Positions 2,007 through 9,548 of a stretch of DNA of 20,249 nucleotides are shown here, in pieces. A program made the position numbers and the translations under genes. How positions within the stretch are numbered: position 1 is the first letter of the stretch; each line of letters opens with the position of its first letter. Below the pieces are notes generated by a model. The model ran no database searches. It was not told the DNA's origin and was given only the letters and a program-made list of their open reading frames with translations. The DNA lies in the IMG/VR virus record IMGVR_UViG_3300015069_000009, positions 1 through 20,249 of that record. The stretch is one strand, 5' to 3'. The stretch is from a virus.

Positions 2007-2780
2007 TCACAGAATCGCTGCAATCGAACCGTTCTCGTGAATCATGTGCGCAGGACGGAGAAACATTATGTCAAAGCTGGCAGAGAATTCGAACATTATC
2101 CCCGCTAACTCCCAATGCAGCTGACGTAGAATGAACGCAGGTCCACCGCTCAACCCTCCTAGGTTTTCGGGTTCTCTCATTCCCTCGCTTCTATATCCCC
2201 AGACCCAGCGTTCGCGTTCGAACCGGCATCCGAGTTTTTCCTCCGTAACCGAAGTTACCGGAGTTGCGCCCACGCTGTAACCTATCAAATCCAGTTCATT
2301 CCAAGAGACTTGCTTACGCAATATCCCCGGATAGCCACCGAGCGCCACCCAGTCGCCCTCTTTAATCAGCCCTGGAGGCCAGGATACGGGAAGAAAGAAT
2401 TGCCTTCCATTCTTCTCCATGACACCGGCCTGCTCGTCGGAAAGTAGGATAGTGGCCAAATCCGTTTTGTGATCTTCCGCGATGAGCTGCGAGATTGGGT
2501 CAAGCTTTATGTTACCGATTTGAAATATCGCTTTCCGTTCTGACCTGCGCAGATCCGTATACTTCTCCAACACGTGAGCACAGGTAATTGCAACCTTCTT
2601 CGACCCGAGTTCAAGGAGTGTGGCGGTTCCGTTATAAAGCTGAGGGTCGCGCTGCGACAAATCAGCAACCAATGCCGCAGCCGTGTAAGGCAGAGCGAAC
2701 TCTCCGAAACACTTTCCCAATGGACCAGTCGCCCAGCTTTTTTCTTTCGTGATCTTATTTGCAAGGATGTCCACAGCCAT
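2007..2780 (-). CDS. Trypsin-like serine protease (S1/chymotrypsin fold), cytosolic
   Basis: 257 residues. The catalytic triad of a trypsin-like peptidase is visible. His69 lies in AITCAHVL, Asp107 in HKTDLATILL and Ser211 in GGLSGGPAF (GxSGGP). There is no signal peptide or membrane segment, so it should act in the cytosol, unlike HtrA/Deg proteases, and it has no PDZ domain. The ATG at 2780 is preceded by GAGGTAAGGT. It lies downstream of, and on the same strand as, the TIR-like gene at 2869-3586, about 90 bases away, so the two could be co-transcribed. Stand-alone trypsin-like proteases next to TIR or STAND genes are known in defence islands, where they cleave effectors or toxins. That role here is inferred. 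The substrate is unknown. Confidence 0.82.
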   Translation of the reverse strand: MAVDILANKITKEKSWATGPLGKCFGEFALPYTAAALVADLSQRDPQLYNGTATLLELGSKKVAITCAHVLEKYTDLRRSERKAIFQIGNIKLDPISQLIAEDHKTDLATILLSDEQAGVMEKNGRQFFLPVSWPPGLIKEGDWVALGGYPGILRKQVSWNELDLIGYSVGATPVTSVTEEKLGCRFERERWVWGYRSEGMREPENLGGLSGGPAFILRQLHWELAGIMFEFSASFDIMFLRPAHMIHENGSIAAIL

Positions 2781-2868: not shown

Positions 2869-3586
2869 TTAGTGTTTGGATTTGAAGAGGATGGTCGTGG
2901 CCCCACGCCGGCTCACAGTGTAGTTCCAACGTTTCGCTGCTTCTTCCAAACATTTTTCGGCAGAACCAGGCTTCAGCTTTAGGAGTTGATCAACTTCAGC
3001 AAAGACCAGTACGCGTTCATTCCCTTCATGAGGACGTGATCCCATCCAAGTTTCAATTATCGAAAGTGCGTCAGCATCGTCGTGAAATTGGGTAACTGCT
3101 TCACTAGTGTTTACCAGGGATTCGTCGCGAAGCGCGCCTAGTTGTCGAATTCCCCTTCGAATCTGATTGCACGCCGGTCCAAGCGCCGCGATCAGATTTT
3201 GATCCGTGCGGTTCACGTCGAATAAAACAGGCGTAAGACCCAACAGATCGGTCGGCAACCGTAGATCTTCCTGCCCCCGCGGGATAACCATAAAGCATCT
3301 CTCCCGACCGAGACGTCCGATGAACATTCCTAACTAGTACAACGTTATCTCGTATCGCTGTCCACTCTTGTTTTCTAATGATGAGGATATCATCTGGCGA
3401 CAAAACGAAGATTCCGAAGTCGTAGTCGTCGAGACCCTTAATCAAGGAGTCCAGCGTCGATTTCGACGGTTCGAAAACTCCTTGGCTCCAGACCGTAACC
3501 TCAGCATCGGGCTCCAAGTTTTCTTGGATTGCATAACCCACCTCCAGTCCTTCCTTGGACGAAGCTACGAAAAGTTTTGGTTTCAT
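2869..3586 (-). pseudogene. TIR-like nucleotide-binding protein (PF10137 type), frameshifted
   Basis: Two overlapping minus-strand frames together give one protein. From the ATG at 3586 it reads [20 protein letters not shown], then VTVWSQGVF, then [12 protein letters not shown] and RDNVVL. In another frame it continues [18 protein letters not shown], then [10 protein letters not shown] and [14 protein letters not shown]. This is the family of predicted nucleotide-binding TIR-like proteins used as NAD+-cleaving effectors in CBASS/Pycsar-like defence. The break is at about 3333-3336. The expected codon order L-E-L-G has lost two bases, so the Glu codon of the ELG motif is destroyed. An about 85-residue C-terminal tail (ETWMGSRPHEG...LFKSKH) of unknown fold follows. 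No good ribosome site is seen before ATG 3586. A sequencing error is the alternative to a true pseudogene. Confidence 0.72.
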
Positions 3587-3717
3587 CCGAGTATTGTCTA
3601 TTCTAATGGATGCTGCCCCACCCACGCGTACGTACATAGCGTGTCGCACAGAATCTGCCGACGTCGCCCTTGACGGTTTTTCCGCCAAGCCCTACGCTTG
3701 CTTCCGCTTGTGTTTTG

Positions 3718-5094
3718 ATGGAACCTGTGACGCTTCGCGAAATACTACGTGGGCCCATCGTTGATTTGCACTCGCGTGGCACACACGCTGACTTGCCAAC
3801 CATCTGCGCACGACTCGGGCTTCCCTCACCCGATAGGGAGGGCTCCAAAAGAGAGCGCATGCGAGCCAGTTACGACGCTACCGAAGACAGTTCTCTTCCC
3901 CTGATCGCGGAGAAGCTTCTTCGCGAGTACCCGCCCTCTCCGGAGTTGCGGAACCAGATCCAGGATATGGCTTGGCAGAACCTCGATACGCAGGATATTC
4001 CGCGTCGTTACCGCCACGAACTTAGCAGAGTGCTAGGTACCGCAGGCGAACTATTTCTTCGGACTGGCGCTTTCGAGACGCTCTTGGACAGCCTGTGGAT
4101 TCTCGAAGATCCGTTCGACTTCTTAGAGTCGGGGCCCAGGAAGAAAGGCCTCCGGGCACAAATCCATCAACACGTCTTTCGCAACCCAGAGGATTGGTCA
4201 GCGGAATTCCTCTTCGAGAAACTCGGAGCATTTGAATCGTCGAGCCGACGTTTCATATTGTTCATAGAGGGCCTTGCCTCGGCGCATGTTCGTCCAGATG
4301 TCGATGACCAACACCGATTTGTGAAAGCTGTGAACCAATGCCTGAGGCCGTGCGGCGTAGAAATGCGAGAGACCGGCCTCGACGGCGGCTATCCCCTGTT
4401 TCAGATTGTGCGGTCTACTGAAGGTGTCAAAGGGAAGCCTAAAAACATCATCTTCGCTTCGCCGGTCAAACCAGACCTCCGATTTCGTGATGCTGTAAAC
4501 AACGACATTGAGATCGTCACCAATGCGGATGCCGTACTAGTTTATGACCGGGCAATTCCAAGCAGTGGCCTCTCCTGGGACGATCTGCAGGACTGGTGGG
4601 CTGATCTTAAGGAACTTTCGGCTGAAGACGCAAAAAAAACGCTATATCAGCGGCTGTTGGGCAGCCTTCCAGAAACATCGCCACCACAGCGCCTTGTCTT
4701 CACCACTTTCTTTCGACACTTTGGTGCGGCGGTGCGGACCCTTCCAGCGCTGCTACCGGAGGTATGGCTTCACTGGGATCCAAAAAATATCACAGAGCGC
4801 GGGCCAGCTGCTCTGACCCGATTCAGAATGGATTTCCTAATGCTCCTTCCGAACGACGTGAGAATCGTCATCGAAGTCGACGGGAAACAACACTATGCAG
4901 ACGACGACCGAGCCAGCCCACAAAAGTACGGCGTAATGATGGCAGCCGACCGTGAGATTCGGCTTGCGGGGTATGAAGTCTACCGATTCGGAGGAGCTGA
5001 GGTCTCCCCAGCGTCACGGGCTTTGGTCGGGGAGTTCTTTGAGCGCCTTTTTAAGCGACATCGCATCACAGTACCTCCGAAGAGGAATACGTGA
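3718..5094 (+). CDS. AbiJ N-terminal-domain protein with C-terminal PD-(D/E)XK nuclease
   Basis: 458 residues from ATG 3718. An in-frame TTG at 3670 is possible, but homology-like sequence begins at TLREILRGPIVDL. The N-terminal about 90 residues (GTHADLPTICARLGLP, GSKRERMRASYDA) resemble the AbiJ_NTD3 module of abortive-infection proteins. The middle part is helical and unassigned. The C-terminus has a restriction-endonuclease-like core: Asp372 in RMDFLML, then EVDGK with Glu386 and Lys390, then QHY and GYEVYRFGGAEV. This gives the D...ExK set expected for a DUF559/Vsr-like nuclease. It is divergent from the TIR-like gene, with about 130 bases between the starts and no strong Shine-Dalgarno. 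I infer an abortive-infection nuclease. The trigger is unknown. Confidence 0.75.
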   Translation: MEPVTLREILRGPIVDLHSRGTHADLPTICARLGLPSPDREGSKRERMRASYDATEDSSLPLIAEKLLREYPPSPELRNQIQDMAWQNLDTQDIPRRYRHELSRVLGTAGELFLRTGAFETLLDSLWILEDPFDFLESGPRKKGLRAQIHQHVFRNPEDWSAEFLFEKLGAFESSSRRFILFIEGLASAHVRPDVDDQHRFVKAVNQCLRPCGVEMRETGLDGGYPLFQIVRSTEGVKGKPKNIIFASPVKPDLRFRDAVNNDIEIVTNADAVLVYDRAIPSSGLSWDDLQDWWADLKELSAEDAKKTLYQRLLGSLPETSPPQRLVFTTFFRHFGAAVRTLPALLPEVWLHWDPKNITERGPAALTRFRMDFLMLLPNDVRIVIEVDGKQHYADDDRASPQKYGVMMAADREIRLAGYEVYRFGGAEVSPASRALVGEFFERLFKRHRITVPPKRNT

Positions 5095-7361: not shown

Positions 7362-7589
7362 TCACGACTTTGGCGCTGCGTCCAAACCGGCATTTAATAG
7401 CCGGTCAACATCGGCAGGAGTCAATCGAGAGGGATCGTACTCGATCTCCACTGTACTCAGCCCCTGGAATACCACTCCTTTTATGCCCTTGGTGGAATAA
7501 ATCCGATTGATCGCACGATCCATACCAGGATGGTAAGGTGTCGCGAGTTTGTACAGCATCTTGACCGTTTTGCCGCCAAATAAACTCAT
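7362..7589 (-). CDS. Small HMA-like (ferredoxin-fold) protein, no CxxC
   Basis: 75 residues from ATG 7589, with a clear GAAGGAG eight bases upstream. The pattern DRAINRIYSTKGIKGVVF, then TVEIEYDPSRLTPADVDRLL, looks like the beta-alpha-beta-beta-alpha order of heavy-metal-associated domains. The first helix, a KGIKGV turn, a strand VEIEYDP and the second helix are visible. The metal-binding CxxC loop is absent (YHPG in its place), so copper binding is unlikely. It follows a broken gene end (7617-7778) by 27 bases and may once have been the last gene of that operon. The function is unknown. The fold assignment is tentative. Confidence 0.55.
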   Translation of the reverse strand: MSLFGGKTVKMLYKLATPYHPGMDRAINRIYSTKGIKGVVFQGLSTVEIEYDPSRLTPADVDRLLNAGLDAAPKS

Positions 7590-7778: not shown

Positions 7779-9092
7779 CTATGCCCAAGGTACCTTTTCA
7801 CGCGCTTGGAACTGCTTCTGCAATACCGTCCTGTTCGCACACTCCCCTTTGAAATCGAACAAGTACAGGAGTGCCATCTCCAAGTACCACATTGTCAGTT
7901 GAGATGCCTCAAAGGCCACACCTTCCTGTCCACTACGCTCAGGGTGTGCTAACGAATTTCGGATTTCGGAAACCGCCTCAGGACCATCCCAGCTCAAAGG
8001 CATCGCGACATCGTGGAGCTCATGCAGTTGCCGTGGGATACTTGTAGGCATTTTCATCAATCCCAGTACCGCGCGTATCTTCTGAGCCGACTTCGCTCCT
8101 CTACTTCCGCGTCCGCTCCCGGTGGCGCCAGGCCAGGCGAGAGGGCTGATCCCGCGATGCTTCCGGAAGGCCGAAGCGATCATCTCAAGTCCGGCCAGGC
8201 TTGCCAAAATTGCGGTTTCTGAGCGCTGTCCGGGATGGGTGGCGGAAAGCCACCAATAAAGCGCCCATTCGACGGCGTCCTTCCAGAGAGGATCTCTGCA
8301 CCGCCGCATGTATCCCGGCAGAATTTGCTGCAAGACCTCCGCGTTACCGGGCAAGAACCAGTGCCCTTGGTGAAACGAGGGCGCGTTGGGGTCTGCACGC
8401 ATCATGCCCCAATGTGCGAATGCGAGTTTCCCATGCTTGTCAGTACCGTGCGCCAAAGCAATGCCTACATAATGTCCCCAGGCGAAAGACATGAACTGTC
8501 TAAAATCAAACAGCAGTGTTTCGAGATCGCTACAGGACTCTCCGTTACCATCGATCACCAGCTTCAACAGATTGGTAGGGCGATGCCATGGAGTCGATAT
8601 GGCCGGCAACGCGGCCTGGTATTCGTGGGGTATGGGGCTAATTGTGAAGCTGTACCGATCGAAGACCAACTGAAGAGGGTCCTGGCCTCGTGTCGGAAGC
8701 CCGTTAAACGAAAATTTTCCCAGATTGTAAAATAGCGCCTCTACTGTGTTGCTGTTCCGCTGGCTCATGACCGCGATCGGCTCCGTGTATCGGACGCTAT
8801 ATCGGAATAGATCCCCGAGAGCGCGTTTGTTGAGTGGAGTTCCGCCGAGCATGCCGTCGCGCACTTCAAAACCTGAATCAAGGAATTGCAACGAAACGGG
8901 TTGACTCGTGTCCAGGCCCACGGCGAGGTCAGGGATTTCCCCGGTGGCGGACGGGAACTCCGTCACATCGAACACGACTCGGCAGCGGGTACGGATCTCA
9001 GCTTCACCCGCTCGCAGGAGACAATCTTCCTCACGGACTACCACCCCTGTTTTCACCTGCGGAATCGCAATTAGCCTCAGAAATTCGGACAT
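7779..9092 (-). CDS. HEPN-domain protein, ApeA-like candidate RNase
   Basis: 437 residues, start ATG 9092. The first about 220 residues appear beta-rich with no family I can name. The C-terminal half is helical. WALYWWLSATHP and ETAILASLAGLEMIA resemble the first helices of ApeA/HEPN proteins. EIRNSLAHPER supplies the RX4H signature (Arg378, His383) of HEPN ribonucleases. There is no signal peptide or membrane helix. HEPN proteins of this size with a variable N-terminal sensor act as single-gene abortive-infection systems that cleave RNA after phage infection. That role is inferred. No partner antitoxin is adjacent. The C-terminus ends at a TAG behind which the frame continues for 53 codons. 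Confidence 0.65.
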   Translation of the reverse strand: MSEFLRLIAIPQVKTGVVVREEDCLLRAGEAEIRTRCRVVFDVTEFPSATGEIPDLAVGLDTSQPVSLQFLDSGFEVRDGMLGGTPLNKRALGDLFRYSVRYTEPIAVMSQRNSNTVEALFYNLGKFSFNGLPTRGQDPLQLVFDRYSFTISPIPHEYQAALPAISTPWHRPTNLLKLVIDGNGESCSDLETLLFDFRQFMSFAWGHYVGIALAHGTDKHGKLAFAHWGMMRADPNAPSFHQGHWFLPGNAEVLQQILPGYMRRCRDPLWKDAVEWALYWWLSATHPGQRSETAILASLAGLEMIASAFRKHRGISPLAWPGATGSGRGSRGAKSAQKIRAVLGLMKMPTSIPRQLHELHDVAMPLSWDGPEAVSEIRNSLAHPERSGQEGVAFEASQLTMWYLEMALLYLFDFKGECANRTVLQKQFQAREKVPWA

Positions 9093-9273: not shown

Positions 9274-9330
9274 ATGGTGGTCCTACATCGAAGCATTCTC
9301 GAGGAGGTCATTGAGGTTGCTGGCGGGTGA
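9274..9330 (+). pseudogene. Possible remnant of a HicA partner (antitoxin tail)
   Basis: A short frame reads MVVLHRSILEEVIEVAGG and ends at TGA 9328-9330. The stop overlaps the GTG start of hicA in a GTGA arrangement, the translational coupling seen in toxin-antitoxin operons. An in-frame stop at 9256 prevents a longer reading. Only a stub of the upstream gene remains. I cannot prove it was HicB-like. Confidence 0.25.
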
Positions 9331-9548
9331 AGCTACCGGTTGTTTCCGGCAGCGAGGCAGTTAAAGCATTCGGAAAAGCCGGATACGAACTCGATGAGCA
9401 GCACGGCAGCCACATCATTCTGCGACGAACCGATCCGCCGCATAGACGCCTCTCCGTTCCAAATCACAAAGAACTTGCCAAAGGGACTCTTCGGGCGTTG
9501 ATCCGGGAGGCCGGGCTGACGGTGGAGGAGTTTGCCAAGCTGCTTTAG
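9327..9548 (+). CDS. hicA: HicA-like mRNA interferase toxin
   Basis: 73 residues from GTG 9327. It opens KLPVVSGSEAVKAFGKAGYE, continues with GSHIILRRTDPP (catalytic His in GSHI), and ends NHKELAKGTLRALIREAG, LTVEEFAKLL. This is the full dsRBD-like fold of HicA, normal in length. HicA cleaves mRNA until bound by HicB. Here the start overlaps the stop of a very short upstream frame, and no HicB-type gene follows before the recombinase module. The toxin may be unguarded, controlled in trans, or inactive in practice. The upstream sequence provides no strong Shine-Dalgarno of its own, consistent with coupling to a lost upstream gene. Confidence 0.85.
   Translation: MKLPVVSGSEAVKAFGKAGYELDEQHGSHIILRRTDPPHRRLSVPNHKELAKGTLRALIREAGLTVEEFAKLL

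What the first reader, a model, noticed from the sequence alone, without database searches (positions are those of the whole stretch)
7779..9092. Large HEPN protein with RX4H motif and unassigned N-terminal half
The C-terminal half has ApeA-like helices and RNSLAH (RX4H), the HEPN RNase signature. The first about 220 residues match nothing I recognise and may be a new sensor domain. No antitoxin is adjacent, as in single-gene abortive-infection RNases.
Basis: partly seen in the sequence, partly recalled or inferred. Interest (0 to 1): 0.52.

Follow-up and report, generated by a model that had tools for sequence, protein, structure and literature searches.

The report
Divergent ApeA-like HEPN ribonuclease gene
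This gene most likely encodes an RNA-cutting protein that halts an infected cell; it belongs to a widespread, almost unstudied family (named after YopA of phage SPbeta) that is a distant cousin of the known antiphage protein ApeA.

Summary
The ORF is real: 7779-9092, minus strand, 437 aa, RNSLAH at residues 378-383. R-x4-H alone means little (62% of shuffles of this protein have one), and no Pfam, PADLOC, NCBIfam or PHROG model matches the protein. The homologues settle it. tblastn finds SPBc2 YopA, plasmid proteins and genomic copies in at least five phyla; NCBI calls some E. coli copies 'YopA family protein'. R and H are kept in 35 of 35 sequences covering the motif. The AlphaFold2 model puts the motif at the end of the third HEPN helix, and the four best structural rows are HEPN RNases (Z 6.0-6.9). 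Profile-profile comparison joins the family to ApeA over 238 columns (E 1.1e-8; best of 60 shuffles far lower), including the end of the N-terminal half. Residues 1 to about 114 remain unassigned. Several relatives sit beside restriction-modification genes (3 of 12 tested loci have type IIG methyltransferases, 0 of 12 control stretches). Best reading: an ApeA-like HEPN RNase acting in abortive antiphage defence. RNase activity, trigger and target are untested. It is a distinct family outside the ApeA models, not a new kind of system.

The parts
7779..9092 (-). Gene of the YopA-family, ApeA-like HEPN protein, 437 aa, ATG start
   Evidence: Open reading frame; scores 163 bits against an HMM of the 26 relatives built without it
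8751..9092 (-). Residues 1-114: unassigned N-terminal part
   Evidence: pLDDT under 50 in the model; no family match; no structural match for the N-terminal half of relative L016
8358..8603 (-). Residues 164-245: later part of the N-terminal half (strands plus one long helix), shared with ApeA
   Evidence: Part of the hhalign match to ApeA; NTD against NTD alone 59 columns, E 0.0012; strands and helix 187-205 in the model
7842..8291 (-). Residues 268-417: HEPN domain (helices 268-284, 291-312, 370-381, 390-411, with an insert between the second and third)
   Evidence: Model with pLDDT about 90 over most of it; best structural rows are HEPN toxin and Csm6'; C-terminal half against ApeA C-terminal half E 1e-7
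8184..8186 (-). E303, conserved acidic residue in the second HEPN helix
   Evidence: E in 26 of 27 rows of A6, D in the other
7944..7961 (-). RNSLAH, residues 378-383: predicted catalytic RNx3H motif
   Evidence: R and H invariant in 27 of 27 rows and in 8 of 8 further copies

Best explanation
The protein is a divergent ApeA-like HEPN endoribonuclease of the YopA family that works as an abortive-infection effector. Steps: (1) the C-terminal four-helix HEPN domain carries the RNx3H catalytic site [shown by conservation, profile homology and model]; (2) two copies pair so that two such sites form one metal-independent RNA-cutting centre [inferred from the HEPN superfamily]; (3) the strand-rich N-terminal half, with or without a neighbouring restriction-modification enzyme, keeps the nuclease off and releases it when a phage is sensed or restriction is overcome [inferred; only the location beside R-M genes in some relatives is shown]; (4) the released nuclease cuts host RNA, most likely tRNA, and stops growth before phage progeny are made [inferred].
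For: R378/H383 invariant, N379 and E303 near-invariant in 27 rows, 35 of 35 with R-x4-H. Profile match to ApeA: probability 95.6, E 1.1e-8, 238 columns, RNSLAH aligned with ApeA RHNLTH; best of 60 column shuffles scores 20.5 against 73.7, and cross-domain controls are blank. Pfam HEPN_Apea in 7 of 27 members, one above cut-off. Model: motif at the end of helix 370-381 and the loop after it, as described for HEPN domains in PMC3710099 (passages); four best VIA rows are HEPN RNases. Defence setting: type I R-M in E. coli, MmeI-like methyltransferase with DUF1016 nuclease and DEAD helicase in a Burkholderiaceae genome, Eco57I-type methyltransferase with SNF2/PLD helicase in Nostoc, 3 of 12 tested loci with type IIG methyltransferases against 0 of 12 control stretches, a bona fide ApeA in tandem in L047. 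In the window itself: a split Cap12/TIR gene, AbiJ_NTD3-DUF559, RES and an LmuA-like protease.
Against: No activity or defence test of any member is known to me. The first profile comparison, with only 5 ApeA rows, was weak (probability 12.4, E 0.0023). Foldseek finds no significant PDB match, and Z of 6-7 for a helical bundle can be a common arrangement (note). The window copy is divergent (N174 and W281 where most relatives have H and Y), and it has no R-M gene beside it; scans with the window protein found no close relative in viral or genome contigs. 9 of the 12 tested relatives have no methyltransferase within 6 kb, and several lie among ordinary housekeeping genes. The dimer and active groove were not modelled.
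Confidence: 0.7

Rival explanations
1. It is the toxin of a classical toxin-antitoxin pair: a small neighbouring protein, not phage sensing, holds the HEPN RNase in check.
For: In SPBc2 yopA is followed by a helix-turn-helix gene (yopB), also in the SPbeta-like contig L014 (HTH_26), and the E. coli copies are followed by a 240-base 'HTH-like domain' gene. In the window a 75-aa ORF (7362-7589, same strand) follows 190 bp downstream.
Against: The follower is not conserved: directly after the gene come DUF1016 in L015 and a helicase in Nostoc, a sigma-factor gene in Planktothrix and an ApeA gene in L047. The window ORF was not matched to any antitoxin (not scanned).
Confidence: 0.14
2. It serves a phage or mobile element in its own regulation or RNA processing (for example lysogeny control), not defence.
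For: YopA lies in the SPbeta prophage; the window is a 20,249-base virus record with integrase, terminase and methyltransferase genes.
Against: Only 1 of 50,697 phage records has a relative by tblastn; most copies found lie on chromosomes or plasmids, several inside R-M clusters.
Confidence: 0.1
3. The window copy is a decaying pseudo-effector in a defence graveyard.
For: The neighbouring Cap12/TIR gene is split between frames; the copy is divergent (163 bits).
Against: The frame is intact over 437 codons and all four signature residues (E303, R378, N379, H383) are kept.
Confidence: 0.06

Closest known systems
YopA family (SPbeta YopA; NCBI product name 'YopA family protein')
   Same: Full-length homology, same length, invariant RNx3H and near-invariant E303; the window protein scores 163 bits with an HMM built without it.
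   Different: 17-19% identical to YopA; no functional description of the family found.
ApeA (Pfam ApeA_NTD1 + HEPN_Apea), single-gene antiphage HEPN protein
   Same: Same layout (strand-rich N-terminal half, C-terminal HEPN), aligned in order over 238 columns with the catalytic motif in register.
   Different: No ApeA_NTD1, HEPN_Apea or PADLOC ApeA match for the window protein; the first ~160 residues do not align.
HEPN toxin of a HEPN-MNT pair (8xdj, 8yuf, 8xeh) and Csm6' (8pe3)
   Same: HEPN bundle over residues 268-417 of the model, Z 6.0-6.9.
   Different: 8-13% identity; no MNT or CARF partner domain seen.
R-M linked HEPN proteins such as PrrC with PrrI (PMC3710099, passages read)
   Same: Several relatives are embedded in type I or type IIG R-M clusters.
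   Different: No ABC-ATPase domain; the window copy has no R-M partner.

Membership tests
HEPN superfamily | Rx4-6H motif with a polar residue after R, conserved across the family | tested here: met
   R and H 27 of 27, N 26 of 27; 8 of 8 more copies keep R-x4-H
[quoted passage not shown]
   AF2 model: helices 268-284, 291-312, 370-381, 390-411; R378 in the third, H383 in the following loop, E303 in the second; best VIA rows HEPN, Z 6.0-6.9
HEPN superfamily | Metal-independent endoribonuclease active as a dimer | not testable with these tools
   Needs a biochemical assay
ApeA | HEPN_Apea domain (PF18739) | tested here: inconclusive
   Window protein: no match; 7 of 27 relatives match at E up to 10, best 3e-5, L032 24.9 bits over the 24.4 cut-off; profile-profile E 1e-7 for the C-terminal halves
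ApeA | ApeA_NTD1 domain (PF18862) | tested here: not met
   No match in the window protein; not among the families listed for the 27 relatives; only the last part of the N-terminal halves aligns
ApeA | PADLOC ApeA model | tested here: not met
   0 PADLOC families for the window protein; among 9 family members only RTasHEPN in 1, E 0.047
YopA family | Full-length sequence similarity to SPbeta YopA | tested here: met
   tblastn E 4e-8 over 71% of the query; HMM without the window gives 163 bits, E 5.4e-47 at Z 100000
Type II toxin-antitoxin HEPN (HEPN-MNT) | Adjacent MNT antitoxin | tested here: inconclusive
   Small ORFs around the gene were listed and none looked like MNT by eye; they were not scanned with a model
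RES toxin pairing (as in SPbeta yopA-yopB-yopC) | RES gene near the YopA homologue | tested here: not met
   RES found in 7 of 21 genomes with a YopA homologue, none within 100 kb on the same contig; only the window and SPBc2 show it

The most novel reading that the evidence does not exclude
The YopA family is an undescribed, widespread second-line effector tied to type IIG and other restriction-modification enzymes: its N-terminal half reads the state of the restriction enzyme or of phage DNA and frees an RNase when restriction fails, a PrrC-like logic without the ATPase.
Probability: 0.2. Interest if true: 0.6.

Novelty: new member of a known kind. Interest (0 to 1): 0.36.

Why it matters
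It gives a testable function (HEPN RNase, probably abortive defence) to a family that includes a gene of a model phage (SPbeta yopA) and whose window member no Pfam, NCBIfam, PADLOC or PHROG model recognised here, so defence-finding programs built on such libraries would miss it. It also widens the reach of the ApeA fold and offers a laboratory system (B. subtilis SPbeta, E. coli plasmid copies) for testing how such RNases are switched on.

Tried and rejected
Motif alone: rejected as evidence, because 62.1% of 5000 shuffles contain R-x4-H.

Single-protein searches: no match in PHROGs, Pfam, PADLOC, NCBIfam or PDB sequences (14: only FAP275 at E 0.074). The A1 profile gives none in PDB sequences. 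Scans with the window protein found none in viral contigs (11) or genome contigs; alignment A8 and protein L037 gave no viral relative.

First ApeA comparison with 5 rows (A11) was weak: probability 12.4, E 0.0023. A13 dropped two of those rows (L051 truncated, L052 under the family cut-off) and added L047 and 10 of the 16 plasmid records (left out: 4 near-duplicates and 2 partial matches).

Synteny with RES (yopA-yopB-yopC in SPBc2; HEPN then RES in the window) looked promising but failed: of 21 genomes with a YopA homologue 7 have RES somewhere, and none lies near the homologue.

Folds: no significant Foldseek match for the whole model (PDB, viral library) or for the N-terminal half of relative L016 (best VIA Z 3.4). 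No fold is claimed for the N-terminal half. Known families absent from those lists are not excluded.

Rows dropped before counts: A6 uses 26 of the 45 ORF hits plus the window; the 19 left out are duplicates, fragments or broken copies; 7 of these and L047 were checked for the motif.

Literature: 'yopA' with 'SPbeta' or 'HEPN' gave 0 papers with two terms; 'yopA' with Bacillus subtilis and prophage gave 1 (listing only); 'YopA family' 0; (listing) showed no paper on the gene; a review of SPbeta (PMC8270828) does not contain 'yopA' (word find); one search listed only Yersinia, yoghurt and unrelated papers. A 2026 Nature paper on a prophage abortive-infection protein, seen only in a reference list, is not held and a word search found nothing; whether that protein is related is untested.

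Full report
Observation. The ORF at 7779-9092 is on the minus strand, 437 aa, and holds one R-x4-H, RNSLAH at 378-383. By itself this is weak: 62.1% of 5000 residue shuffles contain R-x4-H and 8.4% contain R[NDH]x3H. The protein matches no PHROG, Pfam, PADLOC or NCBIfam model.

Relatives. tblastn with the window protein finds 7 of 72,556 plasmid records and 1 of 50,697 phage records, SPBc2 yopA. With the E. coli plasmid copy as query, 19 of 5426 E. coli genomes have a match, 9 of them with a place covering 80% or more, and RefSeq names some of these proteins 'YopA family protein'. Pattern scans then gave 1 locus per productive viral scan (the last is the same contig) and 7 genome loci from Burkholderiaceae, Planctomycetota, Acidobacteriaceae and Cyanobacteria. 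Profile searches of whole genomes found matches in 3 of 297, 2 of 398, 6 of 343 and 12 of 292 genomes of four phyla; these counts include the starting genomes, and the last includes three weak matches (E 4e-4 to 4e-10). The family is thus broad but rare.

Conservation. In the 27-row alignment A6 R378 and H383 are invariant, N379 is N in 26 and E303 is E in 26. Eight further copies all keep R-x4-H. An HMM built from the 26 relatives without the window gives the window protein 163 bits.

HEPN domain. AlphaFold2 on ten sequences gave mean pLDDT 63.1 and pTM 0.66; helices 268-284, 291-312, 370-381 and 390-411 mostly reach about 90, while residues 1-114 are under 50. R378 lies near the end of the third long helix and H383 in the following loop; E303 is in the second. 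PMC3710099 (passages read) describes just this placement for HEPN domains. Among 995 PDB chains compared by VIA-align 2 the four best rows are HEPN RNases (8xdj Z 6.9, rmsd 3.5, 119 aligned; 8yuf 6.8, 3.8, 120; 8xeh 6.5, 2.6, 110; 8pe3 Csm6' 6.0, 2.8, 103); the next, 4.9, concerns the N-terminal half. Three of the four are HEPN-MNT toxin entries, and such Z values can occur by common arrangement, so the structure supports but does not alone prove the fold. Foldseek gave nothing significant.

Link to ApeA. Pfam HEPN_Apea matches 7 of 27 members at E up to 10, one above its cut-off. I built an ApeA alignment of 14 proteins (A13). hhalign against A6 gives probability 95.6, E 1.1e-8 over 238 columns, window residues 164-417, with the catalytic motifs in register. 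Sixty column shuffles reach at most 20.5 against 73.7; halves compared crosswise give nothing; C-terminal halves alone give E 1e-7, N-terminal halves alone E 0.0012 over 59 columns. A first comparison with five ApeA rows was weak. PMC3710099 describes ApeA-NTD1 as about 300 aa, mostly strands, fused to HEPN; the modelled N-terminal half of relative L016 is likewise strand-rich with one long helix and has no clear structural match.

Neighbourhoods. In E. coli the gene rides next to ssb with two tyrosine-recombinase genes and a type I R-M cluster with DUF262 genes. L015 has an MmeI-like methyltransferase before and a DUF1016 nuclease and DEAD helicase after it; Nostoc (L006) has an Eco57I-type methyltransferase before and an SNF2/PLD helicase after. 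In viral contig L047 the order is ADP-ribosyltransferase-type gene, YopA-like gene, bona fide ApeA. As a controlled test I took 12 of the 21 genomes, those whose contigs were long enough, 6 kb on each side of the gene, and stretches of the same size 60 kb away. PADLOC models at E up to 1e-10: near the gene 91 models match among 102 proteins, the best type IIG model in 4 proteins; in the controls 20 models among 109 proteins, none of them a methyltransferase. The methyltransferases lie in 3 of 12 loci (L068, L074, L075, by motif); L074 is the Nostoc locus already known, so only two are new. Nine of 12 have none, and some lie among housekeeping genes. The association is there for a part of the family, not for all.

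The window. The record is a 20,249-base virus entry with integrase, terminase and ParB-methyltransferase genes. On the side of the HEPN gene lie an LmuA-like protease, a Cap12/TIR gene split between frames, an AbiJ_NTD3-DUF559 gene and a RES gene. RES is not a constant neighbour of the family.

Reading. Shown: homology to YopA and ApeA, a conserved HEPN catalytic site, a HEPN-like model, R-M company in several relatives. Inferred from known HEPN proteins: RNase activity, dimer, switch by the N-terminal half or by an R-M partner, growth arrest. For PrrC the R-M enzyme PrrI holds the RNase in check (PMC3710099 passages); for a type IX retron HEPN, tRNA loss and growth arrest are reported (PMC13405049 passages). 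These are models for the mechanism, not evidence for this protein.

Verdict.

Noticed in passing
window 2869-3688, minus strand: A Cap12/Pycsar-type TIR effector gene is split between two frames (PF10137 and PADLOC PycTIR matches in both pieces), so it is probably broken.
   Followed up: partly
window 3670-5094, plus strand: AbiJ N-terminal domain 3 (E 1.3e-36) followed by a weak DUF559 nuclease match, with no HEPN domain found.
   Followed up: no
window 2007-2780, minus strand: Trypsin-like protein with a PADLOC LmuA match (E 4.5e-9), no partner gene seen.
   Followed up: no
window 9327-9548, plus strand: A 73-aa ORF that looks like a lone HicA toxin (recognised from memory, not scanned).
   Followed up: no
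window 7362-7589, minus strand: A 75-aa ORF 190 bp downstream of the HEPN gene on the same strand, of unknown kind.
   Followed up: no
L047 6709-10313: ADP-ribosyltransferase-type gene, YopA-like HEPN and bona fide ApeA follow each other closely on one strand, two HEPN effectors in tandem.
   Followed up: partly
L012 (NZ_CP141061.1) 8001-8973: Some E. coli genomes keep only the first 260 bases of the yopA-like gene; in the one examined an IS1 element lies right after: a defence island apparently cut back at an insertion sequence.
   Followed up: partly
L068 2672-7964: A split MmeI-type methyltransferase, the YopA-like gene and a following gene that looks like DUF3644 (recalled), itself a reported HEPN family.
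   Followed up: no
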